This document shows positions 45,866 to 61,340 of a stretch of DNA of 64,000 nt, one piece after another (positions within the stretch are counted from its first letter, which is position 1; the number at the start of each line of letters is the position of its first letter). The DNA is from Microbacterium sp. LWH11-1.2 (lineage in GTDB: Bacteria; Actinomycetota; Actinomycetes; Actinomycetales; Microbacteriaceae): NCBI RefSeq assembly GCF_038397745.1, contig NZ_CP151636.1, forward strand, positions 434,001-498,000, in the 5' to 3' direction. The notes under the pieces were generated by a model that worked only from the letters and a program-made list of their open reading frames with translations, was not told the origin of the DNA and made no database searches. The translations under genes were made by a program, and so were the position numbers.

Positions 45866-47380
45866 TCAGGAACCCGCGAGCCGCAGCACCCCGTCGACCC
45901 GGCGCGGCACGTCGACCGGGCCATCGCGGAGCTCGTCCGGGAGGACATCCACCGGAGCATCCTGCCACGCGAGCGGACGCAGGAACCGTCGGATCGCCGT
46001 GACGCCGACCGAGGTGTGCTGCGTGTTGGTCGCCGGCCAGGGACCGCCGTGGTTCATGCCCCACGACACGCGCACGCCGGTCGGGTAGCCGTCGTAGACG
46101 ATGCGGCCGACCAGGTCGCGGGCGGCATCCGTCAGCTCTCCGCGCACGGCGCTCTCATCCGACGCCGAGTGGATCGTCGCGGTGAGCGAGTGCGGCACGG
46201 CCTGGAGCGCGTCGCGCACCTCCGACACCGTCGAGTACCGCATCACGACCACGAGCGGCCCGAACGCCTCTTCCGCCACTGCGGGAGTGACATCCTTCGC
46301 ATCGATCTCCAGCACGGCCGGCGTCAGCGAGAACCCGTCCTCACCCGCTCGGGGGGCGACGAGGCTGCGCGCTCCGCCCTCTGCGATCAGGCGCGTGCGG
46401 ATCTCGTCGAACGCCCCGTGGATGCGGGAGTTCAGCAGGGTCTGCGCCGCAGCATCCGTCGCCCGGGCGACCACGTCGGCGACGAGTGCGTCGCCCGCCG
46501 CGCCCACGGGCACGAACGCGACACCCGGCTTCGTGCAGAGCTGCCCCGCCGAACCCGTCACCGAGGTGAAGAGTCCCTCTCCGATCGCGGCGGTGCGCTC
46601 CGCCGCCGCACCCGGCGTGATCACGAGCGGGTTGAGGCTCGACAGCTCGCCGTAGAACGGGATGGGCGTCTCGCGCTCGTCGATGATGCTCTGCAGGATC
46701 TTTCCGGTCGAGAGCGAACCGGTGAAGCCGACCGCCGTGATGCGCGGGTCGGCGACGAGCTGCGATCCGGCCTGCTGGCCGTAGACGATCCCCAGCGTGC
46801 CCGCGGGCGCACCGTAGGCGGATGCCGTCCGCGACAGCGAGTCGAACGAACGCTGCGAGGTGACCAGGTGCGAGCTGTGCGCCTTGATCACGACGGGGCA
46901 GCCCGCGGCGAGCGCCGACGCGGTGTCGCCGCCGACCACCGAGAACGCGAACGGGAAGTTGCTGGCGCCGAACACCGCCACGGGGCCGATGGGCACGAGC
47001 ATCCGCCGCACATCGGGACCGGGCCCGAGCGGGGTGTCCCCCGCGTGATCGATCACGGCTTCGAGGTAGCCGCCCTCGTCGACGGCATCCGCGAACAGCC
47101 GGAACTGGAACGCGCTGCGCGACAGCTCGCCGTTCAGCCGCGCCTCGGGCAGCCCGGTCTCGGCCAGCGCCGCTCCCACGAGCGAGGCGCGGTCGGCCTC
47201 GAGCCCGTCGGCGAGCGCCCGGAGCAGCCCCGCCCGCCACGCGCGCGGCCGGGACCGCAGCTCCGTGAACGCGGATGCCGCCGCCTGGGCGAGAGCCGCG
47301 ACGCCCGCGGCATCTGTGGGCTCGATGTCGGTGGCCGACGTGGCCCCGGTGCGGGGATCGGTCGTGGTGAGGGTGGTCAT
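45866..47380 (-). CDS. Aldehyde dehydrogenase, alpha-ketoglutaric semialdehyde type
   Basis: 504 aa. It has the catalytic Cys282 (GQLCTKPG), Glu in YGELSSLNPLVIT, and the cofactor region VFGASNFPFAFSVVGGDT. This type oxidises 2,5-dioxopentanoate to 2-oxoglutarate with NADP, the last step of the Weimberg route for sugar acids. It directly follows a XylX-like dehydratase that would make its substrate; the two genes overlap (ATGA). GGAAGGACG precedes the ATG. It is the last gene of the catabolic operon. Confidence 0.93.
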   Translation of the reverse strand: MTTLTTTDPRTGATSATDIEPTDAAGVAALAQAAASAFTELRSRPRAWRAGLLRALADGLEADRASLVGAALAETGLPEARLNGELSRSAFQFRLFADAVDEGGYLEAVIDHAGDTPLGPGPDVRRMLVPIGPVAVFGASNFPFAFSVVGGDTASALAAGCPVVIKAHSSHLVTSQRSFDSLSRTASAYGAPAGTLGIVYGQQAGSQLVADPRITAVGFTGSLSTGKILQSIIDERETPIPFYGELSSLNPLVITPGAAAERTAAIGEGLFTSVTGSAGQLCTKPGVAFVPVGAAGDALVADVVARATDAAAQTLLNSRIHGAFDEIRTRLIAEGGARSLVAPRAGEDGFSLTPAVLEIDAKDVTPAVAEEAFGPLVVVMRYSTVSEVRDALQAVPHSLTATIHSASDESAVRGELTDAARDLVGRIVYDGYPTGVRVSWGMNHGGPWPATNTQHTSVGVTAIRRFLRPLAWQDAPVDVLPDELRDGPVDVPRRVDGVLRLAGS

Positions 47381-48567
47381 GCACTCGTCCTTCCGAGCAG
47401 GCCCCGCTGCGCGAGGTTGGCCATGAGGGCGCCGATGCCGAAGCTCCACGGCGCGAGTTCTTCGCTGTGCTGCACGCGGTTCACCAGGGCACCGAGGCGC
47501 GGGGAGGCGATGCGCACGACGTCGCCGACATGGTGCGTGAAGCCGTGGCCCGGCTCGTCGCGGTCGTCTGTGGGGGCGAACATCGTTCCCAAGTACAGCA
47601 CGAAGCCATCGGGGTAGGCGTGGTGCGCGCCACTGGCCTGCCGCGCGAGATCGGCGGGGTCGCGGCTGATCTGCGCCATGTGCGACGACGCCTCCATGCG
47701 GAAGCCGTCGTCGCCGTCGACCGAGAGGGTGACGGTCTCGGAGCGCACGTCGTCGAGCCCGAAGCGGTCGTCGAACAGCCGGATGAAGGGACCGACGGAT
47801 GCCGATGCGTTGTTGTCCTTCGCCCGCCCGAGCAGCAGGGCGGAGCGCCCCTCGATGTCGCGGAGGTTGACGTCGTTGCCGAGGGTCGCGCCGACGATGG
47901 CCCCGTTCGACGCGACCACGAGCACGACCTCGGGCTCGGGGTTGTTCCACTTCGATTCGGCGAGCACGCCGACGTCGGAGCCCGCGCCGACCGTGGCGAG
48001 CACCGGGGCCTTGGTGAAGATCTCGGCATCCGGTCCGATGCCGACCTCGAGGTACTGGCTCCACAGGCCTGCGGCGATGAGCACCTGCTTGAGGCGCGCG
48101 GCCTCGGGCGACCCCGGCACGAGGTCGCGGATGTCGCCGCCCAGCGCGTCGAGGATCGTGGCGCGGATGCCGTCGGCCGACTCGGCCTCGCCACGGGCGC
48201 GCTCCTCGATGATGCGCTCGAGCATCGACACGGGGAACGTGACCCCGGATGCCTTGACGACCTGCAGGTCGATCGGCGACAGCAGCCACGGAAGCGCGTC
48301 GTCGCGGGCATCCGGTGCGGTGTTCGCCCAGACCTCGTCGAACGATCCGATGACGGGACCGTCGGCGGCGCGCACGGCGGATGCCGGGTCGGCCGTCTCG
48401 GTCAGCGAGGCCATGGTCGGGAACGTCGCCGACAGGTCATGCAGTCGGCCGTCGCGGAGCACGACCACGGTCGGGCCCTCGGGCAGCTGGACGCGTCCGA
48501 CGAGCAGCGCGTCCGCGGCATCCGCCGGCAGCACGTCTGCGGCATTCCCGGTCCAGTTCTCGGTCAT
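47377..48567 (-). CDS. FAH-family 2-keto-3-deoxy sugar acid dehydratase (XylX-like)
   Basis: 396 aa. The fumarylacetoacetate hydrolase fold is recognisable from ESKWNNPEPEVVLVV, GATLGNDVNLRDIEGRSALL and AKDNNASASVGPFIRLFD, the pattern of XylX-type 2-keto-3-deoxy-pentonate dehydratases. It would convert a 2-keto-3-deoxy sugar acid to alpha-ketoglutaric semialdehyde, which the next enzyme oxidises. GAGGATCAG precedes the ATG. A 168-base gap holding an 86-bp palindrome separates it from the upstream enoyl-CoA hydratase, so it may form a sub-operon. Confidence 0.9.
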   Translation of the reverse strand: MTENWTGNAADVLPADAADALLVGRVQLPEGPTVVVLRDGRLHDLSATFPTMASLTETADPASAVRAADGPVIGSFDEVWANTAPDARDDALPWLLSPIDLQVVKASGVTFPVSMLERIIEERARGEAESADGIRATILDALGGDIRDLVPGSPEAARLKQVLIAAGLWSQYLEVGIGPDAEIFTKAPVLATVGAGSDVGVLAESKWNNPEPEVVLVVASNGAIVGATLGNDVNLRDIEGRSALLLGRAKDNNASASVGPFIRLFDDRFGLDDVRSETVTLSVDGDDGFRMEASSHMAQISRDPADLARQASGAHHAYPDGFVLYLGTMFAPTDDRDEPGHGFTHHVGDVVRIASPRLGALVNRVQHSEELAPWSFGIGALMANLAQRGLLGRTSA

Positions 48568-48735: not shown

Positions 48736-49506
48736 TCAGCGCCGCCGGAAGACGCCGGGGCGCTTCTCTGCGAACGCCGCGCGGCCCTCGGCGGCATCCT
48801 CGGTCGCGAACGTGATGCCCTGCATCTCGCGCTCGTACGCGATGGCCTGGTCCTGCGGCAGGTTGAACGCCGCGCGGAGGTTCGCCTTGGCCGTCTCGGC
48901 GGCGATCGGCGGGCGGGACGCGATCGTCGCCGCGAGTTCCTGCGCGCGCTCGATCAGCGCGTCGGCCGGGACCACCTCGCTGATCAGGCCCCAGGCCAGT
49001 GCGCGCTGCGCGTCGATCGGGTCGCCGGTGAGCAGCATCAGCGCCGCGTTGCTCGCGCCGATCGAGTTCGCGAGCAGCACCGACATCCCGCCGCCGCCGA
49101 TCCAGCCGAGCTTGATCTCGGGCGCGGCGAAGCTCGCGGTGTCGGCGGCGATGCGGATGTCGCAGGTGAGCGACGCCTCGAGCCCTCCGCCGAACGCGTA
49201 TCCGTTGACGGCCGCGATCACGGGCTTGCGGAGCTCCCTCAGGGCATCGCAGTAGTCGCGCCTGTTGCGGAAGTCCCACGGCGTCTCGTACTGGTCGAGC
49301 GTCGAGATGTCGCTGCCCGCGCTGAACGCACGGCCGGTTCCGGTGTAGACGACGGCTCGCACCTCCGGGTCGTCGTTCAGGTCGCGGACGATGCGCACGA
49401 GCGCGTCGCTCATCTCCTGCGTGACGGCGTTCAGCTTCTGCGGCCGGTTGAGCCGCACGGTCGCGACGTGCCCCTGATGCTCGACGACGATGAGTTCCTC
49501 GGTCAT
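48736..49506 (-). CDS. Enoyl-CoA hydratase/isomerase family protein
   Basis: 256 aa. Crotonase fold with the oxyanion-hole segments GRAFSAGSDISTLDQ and AAVNGYAFGGGLEASLTCDI. The first catalytic Glu position is in GGGLEASL; the second, usually Glu in GLVNEVV-type loops, lies near ALAWGLISEVVP. It acts on an acyl-CoA, presumably the product of the CoA transferase encoded upstream. AGGAGGTACGACC precedes the ATG. Its start overlaps the stop of the solute-binding-like gene. Confidence 0.93.
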   Translation of the reverse strand: MTEELIVVEHQGHVATVRLNRPQKLNAVTQEMSDALVRIVRDLNDDPEVRAVVYTGTGRAFSAGSDISTLDQYETPWDFRNRRDYCDALRELRKPVIAAVNGYAFGGGLEASLTCDIRIAADTASFAAPEIKLGWIGGGGMSVLLANSIGASNAALMLLTGDPIDAQRALAWGLISEVVPADALIERAQELAATIASRPPIAAETAKANLRAAFNLPQDQAIAYEREMQGITFATEDAAEGRAAFAEKRPGVFRRR

Positions 49507-50693
49507 GGTCGTACCTCCTGGAGGGATGTCGAAGCGCCGGCCCCCTGGGTCGCTGAGCCTGTCGAAGCGCCGGCCCCCTGGGTCGCTGAGCCTGTCGAAG
49601 CGCCGGCGAGCGGAGCGAACCGCTCCTCGAGCTCGCCGAGCGCGCCGTCCGCGGACCGCTCCCCCGCGACGACAGCGCGGACGACGGCGGATGCCGCGGA
49701 CTGGAACGGGATGTACCCCGCGACGCGCGGTCGCACCCACGAGGCCTCGATGGTCGAGAGGGTCTGCGAGTAGAACCCGTGCGCTGCCGCGTCGACCGCG
49801 GCATCCGTCCAGGCTGCCCGCAGGCCCGGCTGTCCGTCGTGCTGCGGGATGAATCCCGTCTGCACCTCGCCGCTCAGCAGGTGCCGCAGATGCGCGAGCA
49901 GCGCGGACGACGGCTCGGACCGCCGGGTGACCGCGATGCCGGTGCCGCCGATCGTCGAGCCGATCCTGCCCGCGAACGCCGGTGCGGGGCCGAACGCGAG
50001 CGTCGGCGAGCTGTGGGTCACGTACCCGTAGACGAGGGGGATGTACCCGATGTCCCCGCGATCGCGCAGACGGTCCAGCAGACCGATCGGATTCAGCAGC
50101 TCCGTGCCCTCCGGCGCGTTGGCGGAGAGCCGGGTGAGCAGGTCGAGGGCGCGCAGCGCGATGTCGTGGTCGAAGAGCGCCGACCCGCGACCCGGATCGT
50201 CGCCGAGCGACACCGCGATCGAGCACAGTGAGAGGAACGCGTGCGGGCCGGCGAGGCTCGTGGCCACGAGGCCGCGCTCGGCCAGCACCAGAGCGTCGTC
50301 CCAGGTCTGCGGCGCGTCGACGACGAGGTCGCGCCGGCGAGCGGACACCTGCGTCGCGGCATCCAGCGGCAATGCCCAGAGTCGCCCGTCCATCCGGTAC
50401 GAGGCGATGCTCGGCCCGACGGCGGCATCCGCCCAGGCACGCAGCTGATCCTCGTCGAAGAGCTCGTCGAGCGGACGGATGCCGTCGCTCGCGAGCGCAT
50501 CGCCGAGATGCGGATGATCGAGCACGAGCAGGTCGTAGTGCCGCGCCAGCTCATCGATCGGCGCGGACTCGAATCCCTCCAGCGACTGCACCTCCCAGCG
50601 CAGGGTGTCGCCGTCGCGGAGATCTCCGGATGCCGCGTCGAGGGCGTTCCGCCCGCGCGGGTGATCCCAGGTGAGGCCGACGTAGTCGGTCAC
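49503..50693 (-). CDS. Cytoplasmic protein with solute-binding-protein fold
   Basis: 396 aa. It resembles periplasmic sugar-binding proteins (DGRLWALPLDAATQV, PQTWDDALVLAERG, SGEVQTGFIPQHDGQPG) but begins MTDYVGLTWDHPRG, with no signal peptide or lipobox. It is therefore expected to stay in the cytoplasm. It is wedged between a CoA transferase and an enoyl-CoA hydratase, with four-base overlaps on both sides, so it probably binds an intermediate or forms a complex with these enzymes. The C-terminus carries an 11-residue repeat (GASTGSATQGA) encoded by 33-bp repeats. It starts with GTG. Confidence 0.85.
   Translation of the reverse strand: MTDYVGLTWDHPRGRNALDAASGDLRDGDTLRWEVQSLEGFESAPIDELARHYDLLVLDHPHLGDALASDGIRPLDELFDEDQLRAWADAAVGPSIASYRMDGRLWALPLDAATQVSARRRDLVVDAPQTWDDALVLAERGLVATSLAGPHAFLSLCSIAVSLGDDPGRGSALFDHDIALRALDLLTRLSANAPEGTELLNPIGLLDRLRDRGDIGYIPLVYGYVTHSSPTLAFGPAPAFAGRIGSTIGGTGIAVTRRSEPSSALLAHLRHLLSGEVQTGFIPQHDGQPGLRAAWTDAAVDAAAHGFYSQTLSTIEASWVRPRVAGYIPFQSAASAVVRAVVAGERSADGALGELEERFAPLAGASTGSATQGAGASTGSATQGAGASTSLQEVRP
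49526..49605. repeat. 33-bp in-frame tandem repeat
   Basis: Unit GTCGAAGCGCCGGCCCCCTG plus GGTCGCTGAGCCT, two full copies and a third partial. It encodes the Ala-Gly-Ser-Thr tail of the solute-binding-like protein in 11-residue steps. Each unit contains the core of the dispersed 23-bp repeat. Confidence 0.85.
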
Positions 50694-51916
50694 GACGACA
50701 CCGCCACCGGCACCGCGGTCTGCGCCACGGCACCGGAATCCAGCAGCTCCTGCGTGCGCTCCGGCGTGACGCCGAGCTCGGCGAGGATCTCGGCTGTGTG
50801 CTCGCCGGTCAGCGGCGCGCCGCGATCGATGCGCGCGGGGGTCTTCGCGAACCGGTACGGGAATCCGGGCGTCTTGATGTGCCCCTCGGTCGGGTGCTCG
50901 TACTCGACGAAGGTGCCGTTGTGGATGATCTGGGGATCGTTCACCAGGTCCTCATAGCCGTAGACCGGTCCGACCCACATGCCCGCAGGGAGCAGGGTGT
51001 CGAGCCAGTGCTGCGTCGGCTGCTCGCGCAGATGCTTCGCGACCGTCGCGTAGAGCTCATCGCGGTGCGTCCAGCCGTGCACCTCGGCGTCGAGGCCGCG
51101 GAACGACGGCTCGTCGAGCACCTCGCCCAGCTTCTCCAGATCGGCGAACCCGAGCGCGAGGTAGCCGTCGGTGGTGGCGAAGATGCCGTAGGGCGCACGG
51201 ATGTAGACGTGCGCGTTCGGCTCGGTGCCGCGCTGCTGCGGCACCCCGCCGACCGTGTACACGCTGAGCTCCTGCATCTGCAGGGTCGTGAGCGCGTCGA
51301 GCATGTTCACCGTCACGAGCTGCCCCTCGCCGGTGCGCTCCCGGTGCAGCAGCGCGGCGAGCACCGCTTCGAACGCGGTCGACGCCGTCACGGCATCCGC
51401 CAGGTACTGGCCGGCAGGAGACGGCGGCTCGCCTTCGCGTCCGGCGGACAGCATCGCGCCGCTCATGGCCTGCAGGATGAGGTCCTGTCCCGGACGGTCC
51501 TTGTACGGGCCGTCCTCGCCGTAGCCCGACATCGAGACGTAGACCAGCGAGGGGTTGATCGCGGAGAGCGATTCGTAGTCGAGACCGAGGCGCGCGGCGA
51601 CCCCCGGACGGTAGTTCTGCAGGAAGACGTCGGCTCCGGCGATGAGGTCGCGGACGACCTCGCGTCCGGCATCCGATTTGAGGTCGACGGCCAGCGAGCG
51701 CTTGTTGCGGTTGAGGGAGAGGAACGAGACGTTGATCTCGTTGCCCTTCGCTCCGCCGGCCGCGGCGAAGCGCTGCCACTCGCCGGCGGTCGGCTCGACC
51801 TTGATCACGTCGGCGCCGAGATCGCCGAGCCGCTGGGCGGCGAAGGGACCGGCCATCGCGATCGAGCAGTCGATGACACGATAGCCGTCGAGGATGCTGC
51901 GGGGAGTTTCGGACAT
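50690..51916 (-). CDS. CaiB/BaiF family CoA transferase
   Basis: 408 aa. Class III CoA transferase with the opening LDGYRVIDCSIAMAGPFAAQ, LGADVIKVEPTAGEW, and the catalytic Asp145 in PGQDLILQAMSG. It moves CoA between carboxylic acids and so activates an acid for the adjacent enoyl-CoA hydratase. GAGGTAGG precedes the ATG. The stop overlaps the GTG of the next gene. A CoA-activation step is not part of the Weimberg route, so its substrate in this sugar-related operon is unclear. Confidence 0.94.
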   Translation of the reverse strand: MSETPRSILDGYRVIDCSIAMAGPFAAQRLGDLGADVIKVEPTAGEWQRFAAAGGAKGNEINVSFLSLNRNKRSLAVDLKSDAGREVVRDLIAGADVFLQNYRPGVAARLGLDYESLSAINPSLVYVSMSGYGEDGPYKDRPGQDLILQAMSGAMLSAGREGEPPSPAGQYLADAVTASTAFEAVLAALLHRERTGEGQLVTVNMLDALTTLQMQELSVYTVGGVPQQRGTEPNAHVYIRAPYGIFATTDGYLALGFADLEKLGEVLDEPSFRGLDAEVHGWTHRDELYATVAKHLREQPTQHWLDTLLPAGMWVGPVYGYEDLVNDPQIIHNGTFVEYEHPTEGHIKTPGFPYRFAKTPARIDRGAPLTGEHTAEILAELGVTPERTQELLDSGAVAQTAVPVAVSS

Positions 51917-51939: not shown

Positions 51940-53007
51940 TCAGACGGGGGTGTCGACGCCGCCGGCGGCGGACGACCGCAGCAGCGCGTCGATGAGCTCG
52001 ACGGAGCGCGCGGCGACCGTGACATCGGAGTTGTTCTCGGTGCTCGCACCCGTGATCAGCTCGATGAAGCGCGCCGGCGGGATCAGGCACTCATACTCGC
52101 CCTCGCCCTCCGCGATCGCGACCTCTTCGCGGCGACCGTCGTAGCGGCTGAGCGTGACGCGCTCGCGCTCGACGTCGATCATGAGCACGCCCTCGGTGCC
52201 GAACAGGCGGATGTCGACCTGGTACTTGTCGCCGTCGGCGAGCGTGGCGGCGCCCGACAGCGAGCCGATCGCGCCGCCTGCGAAGCGGATGACGCCGGCG
52301 TCGAACAGGTCGACCGGCGCACCGGCGGTGATCACCCGACCGGCGACCGAGGCCGCCCGGAGACCCGTGAGCCAGAAAAGCAGGGCCGAGGAATGCGTGA
52401 TCTGCCCGTGCGCGTACCCGCCACCCTTCTCGGGGCTCGACCAGGTGCGCGGGTCGGGTGCGGTGTCGGAGTTCCAGCGCTCGAGCATGTGCGACGGGTC
52501 GGTGCCGAAGAGCCCGCGCGTCGGCGAGGCCATGTGGCACATCGCGTACTGGATCTCGCCGATCGCCCCCGACTCGAGGATCCGCCTGGCGGCGACCGTG
52601 AACGGCTTGTAGTTCCAGCCGTAGGGGACGAGGAAGACGGTGCCTGCCCGCTCGGCCCGCGCCGCCAGGTCCCAGGCTTCGTCGGCGTGCAGCGTCATCG
52701 GCTTCTCGCACAGCACGTGCAGCCCGCGGTCGAGCGCCTGAGCGGCGAGAGGATGGTGCAGATCGTGCGGGGTCGAGATCACGACCGCGTCGATGTCGGC
52801 ATCCAGCAGTTCGGTCGCGTCCTCGGTCGCGAAGGCGAAGCCGAATCTCTCGCGGATGGACTCGAGGCCGTCGCCCTTGCCGCAGACGCCGACGAGCTCG
52901 ACGTCGTCGCGTGCTGCGAACAGCGGGAAGTGGTTGCTGGTCGCCCACCAGCCGGCGCCGATCGCGCCGAGACGGACCTTCCTGCCGACCACCGTCGACG
53001 TGCTCAC
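51940..53007 (-). CDS. Gfo/Idh/MocA family oxidoreductase
   Basis: 355 aa from GTG 53007, which overlaps the preceding stop (GTGA) and follows GGTGGA; ATG 53022 is an alternative. Rossmann motif LGAIGAGWWATSNHFPL, the family motif CEKPMTLHADEAWDLA, then the C-terminal sheet domain (GDKYQVDIRLFGTEG). Members oxidise or isomerise sugars and cyclitols with NAD(P). Here it could make a keto-sugar or lactone for the following steps. Confidence 0.92.
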   Translation of the reverse strand: MSTSTVVGRKVRLGAIGAGWWATSNHFPLFAARDDVELVGVCGKGDGLESIRERFGFAFATEDATELLDADIDAVVISTPHDLHHPLAAQALDRGLHVLCEKPMTLHADEAWDLAARAERAGTVFLVPYGWNYKPFTVAARRILESGAIGEIQYAMCHMASPTRGLFGTDPSHMLERWNSDTAPDPRTWSSPEKGGGYAHGQITHSSALLFWLTGLRAASVAGRVITAGAPVDLFDAGVIRFAGGAIGSLSGAATLADGDKYQVDIRLFGTEGVLMIDVERERVTLSRYDGRREEVAIAEGEGEYECLIPPARFIELITGASTENNSDVTVAARSVELIDALLRSSAAGGVDTPV

Positions 53008-53963: not shown

Positions 53964-55114
53964 TCGCCCCAGGCGCCGTTGTCGACCAGGCGCAGACCGG
54001 CGCGCGGAGAGCGCACGTGGGGTCCCGCCGGCTCCTGCCAGTCGGCGTCGCTGCGCGCCTTGAGGATCAGCGCCTCGTCGACGTCGATGCCGACGCCGGG
54101 TCGGTCGCCCAGCACGATGCCGCCGCTCTCGAACTCCTGGTCGAGCGTGAGCCCGAACGGGGATCCGAGATCCTGCACCTCGGCGGAGAGATGGTTCGGC
54201 ACGGCCGCGGCGGCCGCGGTGACCGTGTGGTTCGCAGTGAGGCCCACCGGGCTCACCGGCAGGTCGCGGCTATGCGCGGTGACGGCGACGCGGAGGAAGT
54301 GGGTGATGCCCCAGACCGCTCCGGCCTGCACGATGTCGGCGCCACCGGCGTCGAGCAGCGGCCGGTACTGCTCGAGGCCGGTGAGGTTCTCGCCGGTCGC
54401 GACCGACGCCTTGATGGCCGCGCTCAGTCGTGCGTGGCCCGCGGCATCCCATCGACGGAGCGGCTCCTCGACCCAGGTGACGTCGAGATGCTCCTCGAGG
54501 GCGCCGACGTGGCGGACGGCCTGCTTGAGGTTCCACGACTCGTTGGCGTCGAGCATGAGCGCCGGCGGCGCGCCGTTCGCGGTGAGGAGGTCGGTGAGGA
54601 TGCCGAAGCGACGCAGATCCGCCTCGACGTTGCGACCGCCCTTGAGCTTGGCGGCGGTGTAGCCGCGATCGGCGAAACGGCGGTAGAGCTCGGCGAGCTG
54701 CTCGTCGGTCAAGGCAGCGTCGAGGCCGGAGGCGTAGCCGGGCACGAAGCGGTCGCCCGCGCCGAGCAGACGCCAGAGCGGCTCGCCGGCGAGCTTGGCC
54801 TTGATGTCCCAGAGCGCGGTGTCGAAGGCGCCGATGCCGCCGAAGGTCGCACCGCCGTGCGACGACTTGAAGACCCGCGCGAGCATCGCGTCGTAGAGAG
54901 TGGTGACGGCCCGGGGGTCCTGCCCCTCGATGGCCGGGAAGAGCCGGTCGAGATCGGCGTGCGATCCCATGCCGACGCCCTCGACGCCCTCGTCGGTCTC
55001 GAGGATCACCAGAGGGACGTCGGTGACGCCGGATGCGATGAATCCGTTGACGTCGCCGACGGGCCGCCCCCAGTCGTGGACGGTGCGCAGTGTGCGGTAG
55101 CCGGTGATCTTCAT
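53960..55114 (-). CDS. Enolase-superfamily sugar acid dehydratase (MR/MLE type)
   Basis: 384 aa. The capping domain is followed by a barrel with Lys156-x-Lys158 (AAKLKGG), metal ligands Asp189 (LMLDANESW), Glu in WVEEPL and Glu in GEN, spaced as in mandelate racemase. The usual His of the His-Asp dyad is not in an SPH context; the segment reads SPVGLTANHTVTAA. It probably dehydrates an aldonate to a 2-keto-3-deoxy acid. AAGGGCGAC precedes the ATG. It leads the operon; a GntR-type operator lies upstream. Confidence 0.9.
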   Translation of the reverse strand: MKITGYRTLRTVHDWGRPVGDVNGFIASGVTDVPLVILETDEGVEGVGMGSHADLDRLFPAIEGQDPRAVTTLYDAMLARVFKSSHGGATFGGIGAFDTALWDIKAKLAGEPLWRLLGAGDRFVPGYASGLDAALTDEQLAELYRRFADRGYTAAKLKGGRNVEADLRRFGILTDLLTANGAPPALMLDANESWNLKQAVRHVGALEEHLDVTWVEEPLRRWDAAGHARLSAAIKASVATGENLTGLEQYRPLLDAGGADIVQAGAVWGITHFLRVAVTAHSRDLPVSPVGLTANHTVTAAAAAVPNHLSAEVQDLGSPFGLTLDQEFESGGIVLGDRPGVGIDVDEALILKARSDADWQEPAGPHVRSPRAGLRLVDNGAWGE

Positions 55115-55152: not shown

Positions 55153-55171
55153 CCATACATCATATGTCTGG
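55153..55171. promoter_or_regulatory. Palindromic operator, probable FadR/GntR site
   Basis: CCATACATCATATGTCTGG matches its own reverse complement at 15 of 19 positions. It lies in the divergent region between the dehydratase operon and the regulator gene. Confidence 0.6.
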
Positions 55172-55225: not shown

Positions 55226-55972
55226 ATGACCCTGCCCGCAGATCCCGCCACCGCCGGTCGCGCACGCACCCCGATCGACCGCATCGGCGCGACCGTCCTG
55301 AAGGAGCTCGTCCAGTCGATCGTGACCGGCGAGTTCGGCCCCGGCGACCTGCTCCCCCCGGAGAGCGTCATCAGCGTGCAGTTCGGCGTGAGCCGCACCG
55401 TCATCCGCGAGACCATGAAGCGTCTGCAGGAGAAGGGCATGGTGACCGTCGCCCAGGGCCGCGGCACGCACGTGAATCCGTCGACGAGCTGGAACGTGCT
55501 CGACCCCCTGGTGCTGTCGACGATGATCACGAACGACTCCACCCTCGGCGTCCTCGACGACCTCAGCGTCGTCCGGGGCGCGCTCGAGGCCGCGATGGCG
55601 GCGGCAGCAGCGACCGCCGTCGATGACGAGGCGCGGACCCGGCTCCAGGACGACCTGGCCGCGATGGCCGAGTGCGTCGACGACTCCGCCGCATTCCGCG
55701 AGGCCGACCTGCGATTCCACCGCTCCGTCATGGAGCTCTCCGACAACGCGCTGGCCGAGAACATCGCCCGCGTGCTGATCACGCACGCCGTGTGCAGCGA
55801 TCGCTTCACGGGCATCGACCCCGCGCACGCGTTCGAGCTCACCCTCGCCGAGCACGAGAAGATCGTCGAGGCGATATCCGCCGGCGACGCGGAGGGCGCC
55901 AGGGTCGCGATGAGCGCGCACATCCTCGGGTCGTGGTCCCGCCGGCGCCTGCCGTCCGAGAAGCGCGCCTGA
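55226..55972 (+). CDS. FadR-subfamily GntR transcriptional regulator
   Basis: 248 aa. The winged helix (LVQSIVTGEFGPGDLLPPES, FGVSRTVIRETMKRLQEKGM) is followed by an all-helical FCD ligand domain with metal-type residues in EADLRFHRSV and AEHEKIVEAI. FadR-type regulators commonly sense sugar acids or other carboxylates. It sits between the catabolic operon and the importer genes, and two related palindromes lie before both, so it is the likely local repressor. Confidence 0.94.
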   Translation: MTLPADPATAGRARTPIDRIGATVLKELVQSIVTGEFGPGDLLPPESVISVQFGVSRTVIRETMKRLQEKGMVTVAQGRGTHVNPSTSWNVLDPLVLSTMITNDSTLGVLDDLSVVRGALEAAMAAAAATAVDDEARTRLQDDLAAMAECVDDSAAFREADLRFHRSVMELSDNALAENIARVLITHAVCSDRFTGIDPAHAFELTLAEHEKIVEAISAGDAEGARVAMSAHILGSWSRRRLPSEKRA

Positions 55973-56024: not shown

Positions 56025-56054
56025 TTGCTTGCTCGTTTTCATAAGACGTAGTAT
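56025..56054 (+). promoter_or_regulatory. Promoter of the ABC importer operon
   Basis: -35 TTGCTT (56025-56030) and -10 TAGTAT (56049-56054) with an 18-base spacer, about 70 bases before the binding-protein ATG. Confidence 0.6.
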
Positions 56055-56059
56055 GTTTC
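56043..56059. promoter_or_regulatory. Second, weaker copy of the GntR-type operator
   Basis: AAGACGTAGTATGTTTC matches about 11 of 17 positions of the reverse-complement form of the operator at 55153 and overlaps the -10 box of the importer promoter. Confidence 0.4.
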
Positions 56060-56122: not shown

Positions 56123-57385
56123 ATGAAGCGAAGGATCGCCATCCCCGCCGCCATCGGAGTGGCGGCACTTGCACTCACCGGCTGCGGAGGTGCATCGCCC
56201 AGCGGCACGACCGGAGGCTCCGGCAGCGACGACAAGCTCGTCATCTGGAACTGGGGCGACGCCGACGAGGCCGCGGCCGCGTACACCGAAGACGTCAAGG
56301 CCGCATTCGCGGAGAAGCACCCCGACGTCGAGGTCGAGATCGTCAACCAGCCGTTCGACCAGTACTACACGCTGCTCGGCAGCGCGGTCGAAGCCGGCAC
56401 CGGTCCCGACCTCGCCCTCTTCAACGGCGGCACGCAGCTCAAGAGCCGCGCCGACACCCTCGTCCCCGTCACCGACGAGCTCGCCGACCTCGAGGACACG
56501 CTCGCCGGATGGCCCGCGTTCCAGGCCGACGGCGAGACGTACTCGGCGCCGATGTTCCTTCAGGGCTTCCCGATCTACTACAACAAGGCGCTCTTCACGG
56601 CCGCCGGCCTCGACGCCGACACCCCGCCGGCGACCTGGGACGAGCTCGCCGAGGCCTGCACCGCGATCACCGAGAAGACGGATGCCTCGTGCTTCGCGCT
56701 CGGCAACAAGGAGGGCCTCGGCATCGAGTTCTTCCTCTCGGGCTTCGCCTCGGGCATCTTCACGCCCGAGGAGTACGACGCCTGGATCGACGGCGAGCGC
56801 GACTGGACCGGGGAGCACGCCACGCAGGTCCTGCAGATGTGGGCCGACTCGGCAGCCAACGGCTGGTACAACGAGGGCGCGAACTCCACCGCCATGTTCA
56901 ACGACTCCTTCGACCTCTTCTCCGGCGGCAAGTCGGCGATGGTCGTCGGCCTCATGAGCGGCACGGCGCACTGGAAGCAGTTCGACGAGTTCCTCGGCGA
57001 GGACCTCGGGTTCATGATGCCGGTCAGCACCAACGACGGCACGACGCTGGCCCTCCCCGCCGAGGGCGGCATCGGCTACGCCGTGCTGAACGAGGACAAG
57101 AAGGAGCTCGGCGTCGACTGGATCAAGGCCACCGTCGACCACGATGCACTCTCGGCCTACTCCCTCGCGGGTGGCCAGATCACGTCGGACACGACGATCG
57201 AGCTCGACACCGACATCGCGTCGGCGAACGACATCGTCGGGGAGCTGCCGGGCAGCAAGCCGCTGCTGCACACGGCGCTCGAGGCCGACACGCTCGACCT
57301 TCTGCACCGCCTCGGTCAGCAGCTGCTCGGCGGCGAGGTCACCGTGCAGGACGCCGCAGCCCAGCTGGCAGCGTCGGAGGGCTGA
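56123..57385 (+). CDS. ABC sugar importer, substrate-binding lipoprotein
   Basis: 420 aa. The lipoprotein signal ends in LALTGC with the modified Cys21. The mature part is a family 1 binding protein (LVIWNWGDADEAAAAYTEDV, GTGPDLALFNGG, GFPIYYNKALFTAAGL, TWDELAEACTAIT), the class that binds oligosaccharides and polyols outside the membrane. GAGAGGAT precedes the ATG. It is followed by two permease genes; no ATPase gene is present, so a shared MsiK-type ATPase encoded elsewhere probably powers it. Confidence 0.94.
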   Translation: MKRRIAIPAAIGVAALALTGCGGASPSGTTGGSGSDDKLVIWNWGDADEAAAAYTEDVKAAFAEKHPDVEVEIVNQPFDQYYTLLGSAVEAGTGPDLALFNGGTQLKSRADTLVPVTDELADLEDTLAGWPAFQADGETYSAPMFLQGFPIYYNKALFTAAGLDADTPPATWDELAEACTAITEKTDASCFALGNKEGLGIEFFLSGFASGIFTPEEYDAWIDGERDWTGEHATQVLQMWADSAANGWYNEGANSTAMFNDSFDLFSGGKSAMVVGLMSGTAHWKQFDEFLGEDLGFMMPVSTNDGTTLALPAEGGIGYAVLNEDKKELGVDWIKATVDHDALSAYSLAGGQITSDTTIELDTDIASANDIVGELPGSKPLLHTALEADTLDLLHRLGQQLLGGEVTVQDAAAQLAASEG

Positions 57386-57389
57386 TCCC

Positions 57390-58364
57390 TTGTCGACCGA
57401 CACCACCTCGACCCGGAGCCTTGTTCTCGAGAACAGGGCTCCGGGCCGCGGCCGCACGAAGCGCGGGGGCCGCGCCGATCTGGGCGTGCCGCTGCGCAAG
57501 AAGCCGTGGACGTCCGAGCGCATCGCGCCCTACCTCATGGTGCTGCCGGTCATCCTCATCCTCGCCGTCTTCCGGCTCTACCCGCTCCTGCTCGGCGTGA
57601 ACTACTCGTTCACCGGCGACAAGGAGCTCAACGGACAGTTCATCGGACTGGACAACTACTTCACCCTCCTCGGCGACGCGCGCTTCCAGGCATCCGCCCG
57701 CAACGTGCTGGTCGTGCTGCTGTTCGTGCCGATCCAGGTCTTCGTCGCCGGCATCCTCGCGACGTTCGTCTTCCTCAAGATCCCCGGCCACCGCTTCTAC
57801 CGCAGCGTGTACTTCCTGCCGGTGGTGCTGTCGCCGATCATCATCGGCGCGATCTTCAACATCCTGCTCGCCGCCAACGGCCCGATCAACGGCGCCCTCG
57901 GCGCGGTGAACATCCCCGCCGTCGACTTCCTGGGCCTGCCCGGCACCGCGCTCCCCTCCGTGCTCGTCGTGCACATCTGGGCCACGTTCGGCATGGCCTT
58001 CACGATCTTCCTCGCCGGCTTCGCGACCCTCGACGCCGAGCTGCTCGACGCCGCGAAGATCGACGGCGCGAACCTGTGGCAGCAGATCGTGCACGTCATC
58101 ATCCCGAGCCTCAGCCAGACCATCCAGTTCGTGTTCGTCACGACCACGATCGGCATGCTCACCGGCCTGTTCGGCCTGCTCTACACGATGACCGCCGGAG
58201 GGCCGGGAGCCGCGAGCTACCTGCCCGAGTTCCTCATCTGGAAGCTCAACGGCGAGGCCCGACCGGCGCTGGCGTCGGCGGCATCCGTCTTCCTGCTGCT
58301 CATCGTCCTCGTGATCGGCCTGATCCAGATCCGCGTGCTCCGCCGCGCCACCAAGGAGGCATGA
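57390..58364 (+). CDS. ABC sugar importer, permease 1 (MalF type)
   Basis: 324 aa with six membrane helices. The cytoplasmic coupling loop is ELLDAAKIDGANLWQQIVHV, the EAA motif of binding-protein-dependent permeases. The start is TTG at 57390, preceded by GGAGG at nine bases and four bases after the binding-protein stop. The first 40 residues are a basic cytoplasmic extension. Confidence 0.92.
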   Translation: MSTDTTSTRSLVLENRAPGRGRTKRGGRADLGVPLRKKPWTSERIAPYLMVLPVILILAVFRLYPLLLGVNYSFTGDKELNGQFIGLDNYFTLLGDARFQASARNVLVVLLFVPIQVFVAGILATFVFLKIPGHRFYRSVYFLPVVLSPIIIGAIFNILLAANGPINGALGAVNIPAVDFLGLPGTALPSVLVVHIWATFGMAFTIFLAGFATLDAELLDAAKIDGANLWQQIVHVIIPSLSQTIQFVFVTTTIGMLTGLFGLLYTMTAGGPGAASYLPEFLIWKLNGEARPALASAASVFLLLIVLVIGLIQIRVLRRATKEA

Positions 58365-59191
58365 TGCGCCGGGAACGCCTGGGCAAGTGGCTCATCGCCA
58401 TCCCCATGATGCTGCTGGCCATCGCCACCATCGCGCCCATGCTCTACGGGCTGAACATCTCGCTCAAGACGCGCAAGGACTACGTGCTCGACCGCCTGGG
58501 CGTCACGCAGACGTTCAACGTGCAGAACTTCATCGACGCGTGGACCAACGCCGACATGGGCCGCTACTTCATGAACACGATCATCGTGACCGTGTTCTCG
58601 GTCGCGATCCTGCTCGTGCTCGCCTCGATGTGCGGCTACGCGCTCAGCCACCTGACGTTCCGCGGCAGCAAGGTCGCGTTCCTGATCATCCTGGCGATGA
58701 TGATGATCCCGTTCCAGGTGATCATGGTCCCGACCATCAAGGTGCTCAGCGACATGGGGCTGATCAACTCGTTCCCGGGGCTGATCATCGCCTACGTCGC
58801 ACAGTTCCTGCCGTTCACCGTGTTCTTCATGACCTCGTACTACTCCGGCATCCCGAAGGAGCTCACCGAGGCGGCGCGCGTCGACGGCAACGGGCTGTTC
58901 GGCGTGTGGGCGCGCATCATGATCCCGGTGGGCAAGCCCGCGCTGATCTCGATGGGCATCCTGAACGCGCTGTTCGTCTGGAACGACATCCTCATCGCGC
59001 TCCTGATCATGCAGTCGCCGCAGAACCGCACCGTCATGGTCGGAGTCAGCGCGCTGCGCGGCCAGTACCCCGACAACGTGCCGACGTACATCGCCGGCGT
59101 GCTGCTCGCGGTGCTGCCGATCATCGTCGTGTACCTGATCTTCCAGCGGCAGATCTCGGCCGGAGTCACCGCCGGCGCCACGAAGGGCTGA
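58361..59191 (+). CDS. ABC sugar importer, permease 2 (MalG type)
   Basis: 276 aa with six membrane helices. EAA motif ELTEAARVDGNGLFGVWARI. Two adjacent ATG codons (58361, 58364) follow AAGGAGG; the first overlaps the previous stop. Together with permease 1 it forms the membrane channel of the importer. Confidence 0.93.
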   Translation: MMRRERLGKWLIAIPMMLLAIATIAPMLYGLNISLKTRKDYVLDRLGVTQTFNVQNFIDAWTNADMGRYFMNTIIVTVFSVAILLVLASMCGYALSHLTFRGSKVAFLIILAMMMIPFQVIMVPTIKVLSDMGLINSFPGLIIAYVAQFLPFTVFFMTSYYSGIPKELTEAARVDGNGLFGVWARIMIPVGKPALISMGILNALFVWNDILIALLIMQSPQNRTVMVGVSALRGQYPDNVPTYIAGVLLAVLPIIVVYLIFQRQISAGVTAGATKG

Positions 59192-59195: not shown

Positions 59196-61340
59196 ATGAG
59201 CACGGACCGGATCGAGGTGTACGCCGCTCCGGACGGATCGCCCTACGCGGACGGCTCGCACGGGTACCCCGCGAACGACCTCGCGCACGCGCTCGCGCTC
59301 GTGCGGAAGCGACGAGAGCCGGGGCAGCGCGCCGTGATCTGGATGGCCGGCGGCGAGTACGCCCACACCGCCCCGGTGTCATTCACGGCGGCCGACTCGT
59401 TCACCTCGGTGGTGGCTGTCGACCCGTCGAATCCGCCCGTGCTCCGAGGATCCGCACGCATCACCGGATGGCGTCCGGTCACGGTCAACGGCGTCGACGC
59501 GTTCGCCGCCCCCTCCCCCCGCGCGGTCGCCCGCCGCCTGTACGTCGACGGCGTCGCGGCATCCCGCCCCCGCTACCCGCGCGAAGGATTCCTGCGTGTC
59601 GAGGAGCAGACCGGGCTCGACCCTGCCGGGAGCTTCGTGGGCACGCTGTTCGACGGCGCAGCATCCTTCCGGTTCGCCGAGGGCGACATCCCCTCGCTCG
59701 CTCAGGAGGAGGCGGTCGAGATCGTCGTGCCGCACTACTGGGTGCAGGAGCGGATGCCGATCACCGCGATCGACCGCGAGAACCACACGATCACGAGCTC
59801 GCTGCGGAGCATCTTCGCCCTGCGCGACGATGCCGCCGCGCTCTTCGCGCGGTACTACCTCGACAACGTCGCCGAGAGCTTCGGCGAGGTCGCGGGCGAG
59901 TGGTACCTCGACCCGACGGGCGAGCTGGTCGGCGCATCCGGCCCGCACGTGCTGTACCTGCCCGCGCCGGGTGTCGACATCGCGGACCTCGACGTGCGGA
60001 TGCCGGTGGTCGAGGCGTTCACGACGCTCGACGGCACGGCCGAGGCCCCGGTGCGCGAGGTGCGGTTCGAGGGCATCCGCTTCGCCGAGGCCGACTTCGA
60101 GGCCGTGCCTGCGGCCGTTCCGCCGTTCGGCGTGCGGGAGGACCCGCAGCTTCCGGCGGACGGGCGATACGCCGCCGACGTGCAGGCGGCGAGCAGCGTG
60201 CCGGCGGCTCTGCAGTTCTCGTTCGCGCGATCGTGCGCAGTCGTCGGCGGGGCGATCGAGCGCGTCGGCGGATACGGCGTCAGCCTGGATGCCGGAACGC
60301 GCGGCACGCTGATCAGCGGCGTCGAGTTCCGCGATCTGGGTGCGGGCGCGGTGCGCTCGGGCGGCGGGATCGACGCGCTGGCCGCCGACTACAACCAGGC
60401 CAACGAGATCTCGGACTGCCTGATCGAGCGGGGCGGACAGGTCTATCCGAACGCCGTCGCGGTGCTGTTCCAGCACGGGTCGCACAACGTCATCGCACAC
60501 AACGAGATCCGCGAGTTCCTCTATTCGGGGATCTCGGTCGGCTGGATGTGGGACTACCTGCACAACCCGTCCGAGGGCAACCGCATCGAGGGCAACCACA
60601 TCCACCACCTGGGCGGCGGACTGCTCAACGACATGGGCGGCGTCTATCTGCTGGGCATCGCGCCCGGCACCGTGATCCGCGGCAACCGCATCCACGATGT
60701 CGAGTGCGCGAACTACGGCGGGTGGGGCATCTACCTCGACGAGGGGTCTTCGCACGTGGTCATCGAGCAGAACGTCGTGCACGACGTCTCGAGCCAGGCG
60801 TACCACCAGCACTACGGCCGCGAGGTGATCATCCGCGACAACGTCTGGGCCTTCGGCCGCAACGGGCAGATCTCGATCACGCGCCCGGAGGACCACGTCT
60901 CGTTCACGTTCCACCGCAACATCGTGGTCGGCGACGGGATGCCGGCGTTCGTCGGATATCCGGACCACCGTGACATCCGGAACTTCGGCATCGACAGCGA
61001 CCTCAACCTGTTCTGGGACGCGGCGCCGATCGACGGCGCCGCGCGTGCGGCGAACGCGGCGCGCGCGACCGGCGCGGACGGACGGGTCGGCTTCGAGATC
61101 GTCGAGCCGCTCGACGACGAATGGGCCCGGCTCGGGCACGACCGGCATTCGATCACGGCGGATCCGCTGTTCGTGGATGCGGAGGCGCGCGACCTGCGGG
61201 TGCGATCAGGGTCTCCGGCGGAAGAACTGGGCATCCGGGTTCCGGACGTGCGCGGAGCGGGGCCCCGGCCTGTCGCCGAGCGGCGGCATCCGCTGGCCTC
61301 GGAGACGCGCGTCGATCCGTTCCTCCCCACGCAGGGATAG
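59196..61340 (+). CDS. Right-handed parallel beta-helix protein, probable glycoside hydrolase
   Basis: 714 aa. The N-terminus (IEVYAAPDGSPYADGSHGYP) and middle hold the pattern of GH141-like and related beta-helix glycosidases. The helix coils are visible from about residue 340 on (HNVIAHNEIREFLYSGISVG, GNRIEGNHIHHLGGGLLN, TVIRGNRIHDVE). There is no signal peptide, so it should act inside the cell on material brought in by the ABC importer four bases upstream. Family and activity are inferred from layout. A lyase or epimerase role is also possible. Confidence 0.85.
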   Translation: MSTDRIEVYAAPDGSPYADGSHGYPANDLAHALALVRKRREPGQRAVIWMAGGEYAHTAPVSFTAADSFTSVVAVDPSNPPVLRGSARITGWRPVTVNGVDAFAAPSPRAVARRLYVDGVAASRPRYPREGFLRVEEQTGLDPAGSFVGTLFDGAASFRFAEGDIPSLAQEEAVEIVVPHYWVQERMPITAIDRENHTITSSLRSIFALRDDAAALFARYYLDNVAESFGEVAGEWYLDPTGELVGASGPHVLYLPAPGVDIADLDVRMPVVEAFTTLDGTAEAPVREVRFEGIRFAEADFEAVPAAVPPFGVREDPQLPADGRYAADVQAASSVPAALQFSFARSCAVVGGAIERVGGYGVSLDAGTRGTLISGVEFRDLGAGAVRSGGGIDALAADYNQANEISDCLIERGGQVYPNAVAVLFQHGSHNVIAHNEIREFLYSGISVGWMWDYLHNPSEGNRIEGNHIHHLGGGLLNDMGGVYLLGIAPGTVIRGNRIHDVECANYGGWGIYLDEGSSHVVIEQNVVHDVSSQAYHQHYGREVIIRDNVWAFGRNGQISITRPEDHVSFTFHRNIVVGDGMPAFVGYPDHRDIRNFGIDSDLNLFWDAAPIDGAARAANAARATGADGRVGFEIVEPLDDEWARLGHDRHSITADPLFVDAEARDLRVRSGSPAEELGIRVPDVRGAGPRPVAERRHPLASETRVDPFLPTQG

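What the first reader, a model, noticed from the sequence alone, without database searches (positions are those of the whole stretch)
45866..61340. Sugar-acid catabolic supercluster with mixed Weimberg-type and CoA-linked enzymes
The sequence shows two divergent, tightly overlapping operons around a FadR-type regulator. One has an enolase-superfamily dehydratase, MBL hydrolase, Gfo/Idh/MocA, CaiB CoA transferase, solute-binding-like protein, enoyl-CoA hydratase, XylX-like FAH dehydratase and alpha-ketoglutaric semialdehyde dehydrogenase. The other has a sugar ABC importer and a beta-helix protein. Known families explain import, lactone opening, dehydration and formation of 2-oxoglutarate. The CoA transferase and enoyl-CoA hydratase in the middle do not belong to any standard sugar-acid route, so the pathway as a whole appears undescribed.
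Basis: partly seen in the sequence, partly recalled or inferred. Interest (0 to 1): 0.72.

Follow-up and report, generated by a model that had tools for sequence, protein, structure and literature searches.

The report
CoA-linked sugar-acid module with binding-protein relative
A soil bacterium's sugar-acid gene cluster contains a three-gene unit, found in at least two bacterial phyla, that pairs a coenzyme-A transferase and a hydratase with an intracellular relative of sugar-import proteins, suggesting an undescribed way of breaking down sugar acids.

Summary
The odd CoA genes are the conserved core, not passengers. With a cytosolic relative of sugar-binding proteins (SBPL; invariant TWxHxRG and DHPH motifs) they form a unit, CaiB-SBPL-hydratase. 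Of 56 distinct clade-I SBPL genes examined, 54 adjoin CaiB and 53 a crotonase. Of 17 clade-II genes, all adjoin CaiB, 14 a MaoC hydratase, none a crotonase. The unit recurs in Actinobacteria and Proteobacteria with sugar dehydrogenases, lactonase-type hydrolases and glycosidases, once with a TRAP importer. The enolase-superfamily protein lacks the His-Asp dyad of acid-sugar dehydratases (22 of 22 rows). I propose that the unit dehydrates an aldonate as its CoA thioester to a 2-keto-3-deoxy acid, which the XylX-like dehydratase and ALDH carry to 2-oxoglutarate. This is inferred; nothing was assayed. SBPL's role (enzyme or substrate-presenting partner) is open; structure prediction never ran. 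My searches of the held library found no paper describing the unit.

The parts
44571..44585 (-). operator site 1 (AGACGTATGATGAAT, 1 mismatch), 42 bp before the AKR start
44628..45608 (+). aldo-keto reductase, candidate aldose 1-dehydrogenase (best solved relatives: L-galactose dehydrogenases)
   Evidence: no NCBIfam model over cut-off
45866..47380 (-). aldehyde dehydrogenase, likely alpha-ketoglutaric semialdehyde dehydrogenase type
47377..48567 (-). XylX-like FAH-family dehydratase (9kkt 441 bits; 2-keto-3-deoxy-D-arabinonate dehydratase 2q18 56 bits)
48736..49506 (-). enoyl-CoA hydratase (crotonase); both catalytic Glu kept
49503..50693 (-). SBPL: cytosolic solute-binding-protein-like protein, no signal peptide, TWDHPRG and DHPH motifs
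50690..51916 (-). class III (CaiB) CoA-transferase, catalytic Asp174 kept
51940..53022 (-). Gfo/Idh/MocA oxidoreductase
53004..53963 (-). MBL-fold hydrolase, candidate lactonase
53960..55114 (-). enolase-superfamily (MR-type) protein; KxK and metal ligands kept, His-Asp dyad lost
55155..55169 (-). operator site 2 (AGACATATGATGTAT) between MR and regulator
55226..55972 (+). GntR/FCD (FadR-type) regulator
56044..56058 (+). operator site 3 (AGACGTAGTATGTTT) upstream of the SBP gene
56123..57385 (+). sugar ABC solute-binding protein with a lipoprotein-like N-terminus (by eye)
57423..58364 (+). ABC permease 1
58361..59191 (+). ABC permease 2
59196..61340 (+). beta-helix protein, no signal peptide by eye, homologue of BT_1002 (GH141, family name recalled)

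Best explanation
One co-regulated oxidative catabolic system. An L-fucose-configured glycoside is imported and cut by the GH141-like enzyme. The free aldose (a pentose such as D-arabinose fits the downstream enzymes best) is oxidised by the AKR or the Gfo enzyme to a lactone, which the MBL hydrolase opens. The aldonate is charged with CoA by CaiB. The crotonase (MaoC in the sister clade) removes the 3-hydroxyl from the aldonyl-CoA, giving a 2-keto-3-deoxy product. CaiB then passes the CoA to the next aldonate. XylX and ALDH convert the 2-keto-3-deoxypentonate through alpha-ketoglutaric semialdehyde to 2-oxoglutarate. SBPL is a cytosolic descendant of a sugar-binding protein that binds the sugar acid, either as a catalyst (for example of epimerisation or tautomerisation) or as a partner presenting it to CaiB and the hydratase. 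Shown: families, gene order, conserved catalytic residues, missing dyad in MR, lack of signal peptide, shared operator in this genome, crotonase/MaoC exchange. Inferred: every reaction, the substrate, and SBPL's role.
For: CaiB-SBPL-hydratase linkage in 73 distinct genes: clade I 54/56 CaiB and 53/56 ECH; clade II 17/17 CaiB, 14/17 MaoC, 0/17 adjoining ECH. The 14 MaoC-linked rows of the tree fall in one 15-row clade. An exchange of crotonase for MaoC points to acyl-CoA hydration or dehydration as the step. Catalytic residues kept in the rows aligned: ECH Glu/Glu 62/62, clade-I CaiB Asp 61/61, MaoC Asp/His 15/15. MR lacks the dyad in 22/22 rows (alignment). Three annotated type-A loci with SDR and FAH list no other aldonate dehydratase within 12 kb (the gene tables are incomplete). 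L049 is LacI-DctP-DctQ-DctM-CaiB-SBPL-MaoC-Amidohydro_2, so the unit can sit with a TRAP importer. L057 is GH95-CaiB-SBPL-MaoC-Amidohydro_2-Gfo. Operator sites (at most 1 mismatch) only at this cluster in the genome, and a zero-mismatch site before the unit's operon in two Sphingomonas loci. XylX homology; FAH-family enzymes as 2-keto-3-deoxy-D-pentonate dehydratases (PMC7374468 and PMC9795676, passages).
Against: No assay or expression data, and no structural model (queue always full). Six of ten clade-II loci lie near a fuconate-dehydratase-like MR; the four of these aligned have the dyad, so there the unit need not be the aldonate dehydratase. Window-type clusters also keep an MR-type protein whose role is not explained. 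L078 (Sinorhizobium) has two enolase-superfamily genes within 12 kb and no FAH annotated. The Sphingomonas loci carry the unit without XylX or ALDH but with a 2-hydroxyacid dehydrogenase and a P-loop protein, so the product may not always be a 2-keto-3-deoxypentonate. No lactonase was recognised in most type-A loci (of the lactonase-type families looked for, one hit, an amidohydrolase in L048; SMP-30 is annotated in L078). GH141/GH95 relatives suggest L-fucose or L-galactose, whereas XylX plus ALDH suggest a pentose. The AKR's operator is weakly conserved: of the seven window-type loci with an AKR, only L059 (near-identical strain) and L047 (2 mismatches) have a site before it. Three genomes keep the operon without SBPL in cis.
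Confidence: 0.42

Rival explanations
1. Ordinary Weimberg-type route: the MR-type enzyme is the aldonate dehydratase after all, and the CoA unit handles a separate acyl compound released from the same plant material (for example an acyl group on the glycan).
For: MR keeps KxK and all three metal ligands in 22/22 rows; an MR-type gene is in 16 of 16 window-type loci; fuconate-dehydratase-like MR near 6 of 10 clade-II units.
Against: Both dyad residues replaced in 22/22 rows. The unit occurs with SDR and FAH where no other aldonate dehydratase is annotated. Across cluster types CaiB and a hydratase are constant while MR is not.
Confidence: 0.25
2. SBPL is not catalytic: it is a cytosolic sugar-acid-binding partner or sensor that presents substrate to CaiB and the hydratase, or gates them. 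(This concerns SBPL only and is compatible with the main reading.)
For: Homology to maltose/trehalose-type binding proteins. Three Microbacterium genomes keep CaiB-ECH-XylX without an SBPL between them, and all three have a clade-II SBPL elsewhere, as expected if SBPL can act in trans.
Against: 47 invariant columns, among them several charged or His residues, at 32-80% identity look like more than binding; but invariance alone does not show catalysis.
Confidence: 0.4
3. The unit works in another direction or on another bond: CaiB/ECH hydrate an enoyl-CoA or cleave a C-C bond of a sugar-derived acyl-CoA rather than dehydrate an aldonyl-CoA.
For: Crotonases catalyse several reactions on CoA thioesters (recalled); the Sphingomonas loci have a 2-hydroxyacid dehydrogenase and a P-loop protein instead of XylX/ALDH.
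Against: XylX is present in 16 of 16 window-type and 11 of 13 type-A loci, which fits a 2-keto-3-deoxy acid product.
Confidence: 0.2

Closest known systems
Weimberg pathway and other Route II oxidative pentose pathways (Caulobacter xylXABCD, recalled; Herbaspirillum clusters, PMC6336799)
   Same: aldose dehydrogenase, putative lactonase, FAH-family 2-keto-3-deoxypentonate dehydratase, aldehyde dehydrogenase, sugar importer
   Different: no IlvD/EDD-type dehydratase among the operon proteins; the enolase-superfamily protein lacks the dyad; a CaiB-SBPL-hydratase unit stands in the middle. The term CoA has 0 occurrences in the main texts of PMC7374468, PMC6336799 and PMC9795676.
Class III CoA-transferase plus (R)-hydratase of the methylaspartate cycle (Mct/Mch, PMC5592240)
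   Same: class III transferase charging a free acid, and a hydratase of the former MaoC family acting on the CoA ester (passages)
   Different: substrate there is mesaconate; no solute-binding-like protein or sugar enzymes in the passages seen
Cyclohexadienyl dehydratase, an enzyme that evolved from a solute-binding protein (PMC7683729, abstract)
   Same: precedent for a solute-binding protein becoming a dehydratase
   Different: descends from an arginine-binding protein; SBPL is related to sugar-binding proteins, cytosolic and linked to CoA enzymes, and its activity is unknown
Phenyllactate dehydration by FldA and FldBC (recalled)
   Same: CaiB-type transferase recycles CoA around a dehydration of a hydroxyacyl-CoA
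   Different: FldBC is a radical-type dehydratase of 2-hydroxyacyl-CoA; here a crotonase or MaoC would remove a 3-hydroxyl

Membership tests
Weimberg pathway | FAH-family (XylX-type) 2-keto-3-deoxy-D-pentonate dehydratase | tested here: met
   homology only: 9kkt 441 bits, 2q18 56.5 bits; the function of 9kkt beyond its name is not known to me
Weimberg pathway | alpha-ketoglutaric semialdehyde dehydrogenase | tested here: inconclusive
   Aldedh family; best solved relatives are aldehyde dehydrogenases 1eyy and 3v4c; none of the NCBIfam models shown reaches its cut-off (best 25 of 37)
Weimberg pathway | IlvD/EDD-type aldonate dehydratase in the cluster | tested here: not met
   no such domain among the operon proteins scanned; the rest of the genome was not searched for it
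Weimberg pathway | growth on D-xylose through these genes | not testable with these tools
   needs genetics
Enolase-superfamily acid-sugar dehydratase (MR subgroup) | KxK motif and three metal-binding acidic residues | tested here: met
   22 of 22 rows of at least 60% identity, window copy and duplicates included
Enolase-superfamily acid-sugar dehydratase (MR subgroup) | His-Asp dyad | tested here: not met
   Gly265 and Val290 in 22 of 22 rows; alignments
Class III CoA-transferase | CoA_transf_3 domain with catalytic Asp | tested here: met
   362.6 bits; Asp174 in 61 of 61 rows of at least 60% identity, clade-II CaiB not counted; activity not tested
Enoyl-CoA hydratase (crotonase) | two catalytic Glu | tested here: met
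   Glu110 and Glu130 in 62 of 62 rows of at least 60% identity
ABC-importer solute-binding protein | sequence relation to sugar-binding proteins | tested here: met
   profile A2 against 1eu8 E 2.5e-15; PF01547/PF13416 in clade-II members
ABC-importer solute-binding protein | signal peptide / export | tested here: not met
   TWxHxRG starts within the first 24 residues in 240 of 240 listed proteins, within 13 in 238 (the best 120 of each of two searches)
GH141 | sequence relation to BT_1002 | tested here: met
   5mqp 107.9 bits over residues 7-527; activity not tested; family number recalled

The most novel reading that the evidence does not exclude
A new way to degrade sugar acids: aldonates are dehydrated as CoA thioesters by a CaiB transferase and a crotonase or MaoC hydratase, with the help of a cytosolic enzyme that evolved from an ABC sugar-binding protein. 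The crotonase/MaoC exchange would track the stereochemistry at C3 of the sugar acid.
Probability: 0.33. Interest if true: 0.85.

Novelty: new variant of a known kind. Interest (0 to 1): 0.66.

Why it matters
If the CoA unit dehydrates aldonates, it adds a third chemistry beside iron-sulfur (IlvD) and magnesium (enolase-type) dehydratases, with hydratases able to choose the stereochemistry. It would also give a function to a family now mostly named 'hypothetical protein' or 'extracellular solute-binding protein' although it has no export signal; the search scored 1,877 relatives at E 1e-3 or better among 8,000 candidates (the more distant of these may be true binding proteins). The unit is small, clearly bounded and present in culturable bacteria, so the question can be tested directly.

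Tried and rejected
Rejected: chance assembly of genes (order recurs across genera and two phyla); CoA unit regulated apart from XylX/ALDH (no operator of this regulon in the ECH-XylX gap; a 10-bp inverted repeat of unknown meaning lies there); SBPL as the binding protein of the ABC importer (no signal peptide, and the importer has its own SBP).

Led nowhere: profile-profile comparison of SBPL with the window's own SBP (probability 0.4%); paper searches for CoA-linked aldonate steps or the unit (0 papers; 5 listed; 28 found, 20 listed; none about this by title; PMC9007349 seen by passages, 12 of 14 places, no such unit). The substrate could not be fixed. The tree's outgroup was too distant to place SBPL's origin or to say whether clade I is one clade; the change count I asked for printed nothing. 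In one search the rows from the genome's own MR paralogues were mis-framed and not used; the dyad was re-examined.

Rows dropped: for the 42-row SBPL alignment, L048 and L054 (the match ran past a stop), L040 and L045 (copies of L060 and L067) and L044 (my choice, contig-edge locus). For the cluster table, 41 of 49 loci were grouped; L040, L044, L045, L060, L062, L069, L070 and L084 were left out (copies, contig ends, other order), and L129-L131 were in it because they had been fetched for lacking SBPL. Identity thresholds per gene there were set by me. Of the 53 places, 30 had loci and were examined; 23 weaker ones were not. Of 145 plasmid records, 7 regions were fetched, 2 without annotation. 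The 73 distinct genes include the window's own copy (L085) and a 98% identical strain (L059); only genes with an identical 400-base slice were removed, so counts are not independent. L123 counts as clade I by BLAST but lies beside clade II in the tree. Rows include the window copy and duplicates.
Full report
WHAT IS THERE. The window lies in a 4.22-Mb Microbacterium genome (nearest named relative found Microbacterium sp. TPD7012, 97-100% in the cluster's proteins). The minus operon runs MR-type enolase-superfamily protein, MBL-fold hydrolase, Gfo/Idh/MocA, CaiB, SBPL, enoyl-CoA hydratase, XylX-like FAH protein, ALDH. The plus operon runs GntR/FCD regulator, sugar SBP, two permeases, beta-helix protein. 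The beta-helix protein shows no signal peptide by eye and matches the glycoside hydrolase BT_1002 (5mqp, 107.9 bits), which is GH141 by recall. No Rfam family reaches its gathering score in the window.

ONE REGULON. Comparing the regulator-flanking regions of relatives gave a 15-bp site, AGACRTAKKATGTWT. In the window it occurs three times with up to 2 mismatches, against 0.05 expected. In the whole genome it occurs three times with up to 1 mismatch, against 0 for the reversed pattern: in the MR/regulator gap, upstream of the SBP, and 42 bp before an aldo-keto reductase (44628-45608) whose best solved relatives are L-galactose dehydrogenases. With up to 2 mismatches, sites recur in the MR/regulator gap of most related loci scanned (not in L046 or L130) and before many of the SBP genes; a zero-mismatch site lies between RhaM and DUF4432, ahead of the CaiB-SBPL-ECH operon, in two Sphingomonas loci. 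The AKR site is weakly conserved: of seven window-type loci with an AKR, L059 (the near-identical strain) and L047 (2 mismatches) have it within 260 bp; one clade-II locus, L056, has a site before its AKR too. The site was built from the MR and SBP promoters, so its presence there is by construction; the independent parts are its absence elsewhere in the genome, the AKR site, and the Sphingomonas DUF4432 site. None lies between ECH and XylX.

THE CORE IS CaiB-SBPL-HYDRATASE. SBPL has no Pfam match at E 0.001 but its profile matches maltose/trehalose-type binding proteins (1eu8, E 2.5e-15). In 240 of 240 listed relatives the TWxHxRG motif starts within the first 24 residues, in 238 within 13 (these are the best 120 of each of two searches, so fairly close relatives). 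As a check, the most hydrophobic 11-residue stretch in the first 40 residues scores -0.18 in the window's SBPL, 0.73 on average in the family and 2.17 at most, against 2.25 for the window's true SBP, so at least one member has a hydrophobic stretch there. Forty-seven columns are invariant in 43 sequences whose identity to the window's copy is 32-80%, among them Thr8, Trp9, His11, Arg13, Asp54, Asp59, His60, His62, Asp111, Gln115, Tyr224, Gln288, Arg321.

Gene order was counted in 73 distinct SBPL genes. Clade I: 56 genes, CaiB within 300 bp in 54, crotonase within 400 bp in 53, MaoC in 0. Clade II: 17 genes, CaiB in 17, MaoC within 300 bp in 14, crotonase in 0. Clade-II exceptions: L081's second copy has MaoC upstream of CaiB, L087 has a crotonase 1.3 kb away beyond CaiB, L125 has neither in its short flanks. 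Clade-I exceptions: L084 has its crotonase 3.8 kb upstream; L122 has a CaiB on the other strand about 1.3 kb away beyond a LacI gene and no ECH in the flanks; L123 has neither. All 14 MaoC-linked rows in the tree lie in one 15-row clade with L087 (SH-aLRT 96). That clade nests within clade I under a very distant outgroup, so clade I may not be one clade. SBPL overlaps the CaiB stop by 4 bp in 32 of 46 loci, with the start codon chosen nearest to that stop.

Catalytic residues are kept in the rows aligned: crotonase Glu110 and Glu130 in 62 of 62, clade-I CaiB Asp174 in 61 of 61, MaoC Asp38/His43 in 15 of 15 (rows of at least 60% identity, window copy and duplicates included; residue roles recalled). 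Clade-II CaiB was not counted. Hydratases related to rat enoyl-CoA hydratase give (3S)-hydroxyacyl-CoA and those related to the PaaZ domain (MaoC type, recalled) give (3R) (PMC9007349, passage). So the exchange would fit substrates epimeric at C3. That is inference.

HOW COMMON. Strong SBPL matches: 11 (clade I) and 10 (clade II) of 198 Microbacterium genomes, one genome holding both; 48 of 299 Microbacteriaceae at E 1e-20; only 3 of 346 genomes drawn across the phylum at E 1e-30, the window's own among them. Related genes lie on 145 of 72,556 plasmid records, 90 of them Sinorhizobium.

FOUR KINDS OF CLUSTER (41 of 49 loci grouped). Window-type (16 loci): MR, MBL, Gfo, CaiB, ECH, XylX and regulator in 16 of 16, ALDH in 11, SBPL in 13 (the other three had been fetched because they lack it). 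Type A (13 loci: Herbiconiux, Arthrobacter, Pseudoclavibacter, Achromobacter, Sinorhizobium, Azospirillum, Pseudosulfitobacter, Variovorax, Streptomyces and one Microbacterium): CaiB, SBPL, ECH 13 of 13, XylX 11, SDR and DUF4432 12, xylose-isomerase-like barrel 11, Gfo 10, ALDH 6. Sphingomonas (2 loci): the unit with MR, rhamnose mutarotase, DUF4432, SDR, a 2-hydroxyacid dehydrogenase and a P-loop protein, no XylX. Clade II (10 loci): CaiB, SBPL, MaoC 10 of 10, an Amidohydro_2 protein (family that includes sugar lactonases, recalled) in 9, AKR in 6. Two clade-II loci are telling: L057 is GH95-CaiB-SBPL-MaoC-Amidohydro_2-Gfo and L049 is LacI-DctP-DctQ-DctM-CaiB-SBPL-MaoC-Amidohydro_2. A TRAP importer usually carries carboxylates (recalled), so there the unit probably works on an imported acid.

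LOSS OF SBPL IN CIS. Among 198 Microbacterium genomes the crotonase occurs in 14 at E 1e-70. The three with the crotonase operon but no SBPL between CaiB and ECH (G175, G012, G087) all carry a clade-II SBPL elsewhere. By hand, the chance of 3 of 3 is 120/1,274,196, about 1 in 10,000, if genomes were independent, which they are not. It suggests that SBPL is needed and can be supplied in trans. It could also mean that SBPL is dispensable.

THE MR-TYPE PROTEIN. It keeps KxK and the three metal ligands but has Gly and Val in place of the dyad Asp and His in 22 of 22 rows of at least 60% identity, Sphingomonas included. It is therefore not a standard acid-sugar dehydratase, though another residue could serve as the acid. 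In contrast six of ten clade-II loci lie near an MR with fuconate-dehydratase-like motifs, and the four aligned have both dyad residues. That speaks against the unit being the only aldonate dehydratase there. No MR was found in L049, L050, L057 and L058. L078 also has two annotated enolase-superfamily genes within 12 kb.

HOW IT MOST LIKELY WORKS. Sugar in, glycoside cut, aldose oxidised, lactone opened, aldonate charged with CoA, 3-hydroxyl eliminated by the hydratase, CoA returned, then XylX and ALDH to 2-oxoglutarate. FAH-family enzymes are known 2-keto-3-deoxy-D-pentonate dehydratases (PMC7374468 and PMC9795676, passages); a bacterial non-phosphorylative D-arabinose route is reported in PMC6336799 (passages). 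Precedent for a class III CoA-transferase with a MaoC-family hydratase is PMC5592240 (passages); for a solute-binding protein turned dehydratase, PMC7683729 (abstract). The product logic is strongest for XylX-containing clusters. The sugar is not settled: GH141 and GH95 relatives (fucosidase families, recalled) and the L-galactose-dehydrogenase-like AKR point to an L-fucose-configured sugar, XylX and ALDH to a pentose; D-arabinose would satisfy both.

LIMITS. No structure could be predicted, no assay or expression was available, the genome was not screened for other dehydratases, and the paper library lacks most subscription journals and preprints. 'Not described' means not found.

Noticed in passing
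window 49553-49566, 49586-49599 (also 45746, 22494, 22927, 35631): A dispersed repeat (TTCGACAAGCTCAGGGA-like) has 148 copies in the genome (up to 2 mismatches; reversed control 2). Two copies lie in the C-terminal tail of SBPL and seem to explain its 396 aa against about 373 in relatives.
   Followed up: partly
window 48568-48735: The ECH-XylX gap (168 bp) contains a 10-bp inverted repeat (ACAATTCAGC ... GCTGAATTGT). By aligned ends the gap is about 150-170 bp in L039, L059 and L066, about 17-64 bp in the other window-type loci with SBPL looked at, and over 200 bp in some type-A loci. No operator of this regulon lies in it.
   Followed up: partly
L075:11875-13615 and L076:11875-13618: Sphingomonas clusters follow CaiB-SBPL-ECH with a 2-hydroxyacid dehydrogenase and a P-loop protein (kinase-like by eye) instead of XylX/ALDH, hinting at a different end product.
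   Followed up: no
L123:1501-4112: A diverged SBPL (37%) followed by an aldehyde dehydrogenase-like gene, with no CaiB or hydratase found in the 1.5-kb flanks; very long branch in the tree.
   Followed up: no
L078, L082, L083, L068-L074, L077: A recurrent set Gfo - xylose-isomerase-like barrel - DUF4432 - SDR (order of the last two varies) accompanies the unit in many genera; DUF4432 proteins are annotated as aldose 1-epimerase family and may be the mutarotase.
   Followed up: partly
L084 (Shinella plasmid pShin-01) 7462-14374: Unit with another order: ECH-SDR-unknown protein (no Pfam, 360 aa)-ABC ATPase-SMP-30 lactonase-SBPL-CaiB.
   Followed up: no
window 61395-62513 (+): Radical SAM protein downstream of the GH141-like gene; also next to the cluster in L040 and L042, probably a separate conserved neighbour.
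   Followed up: no
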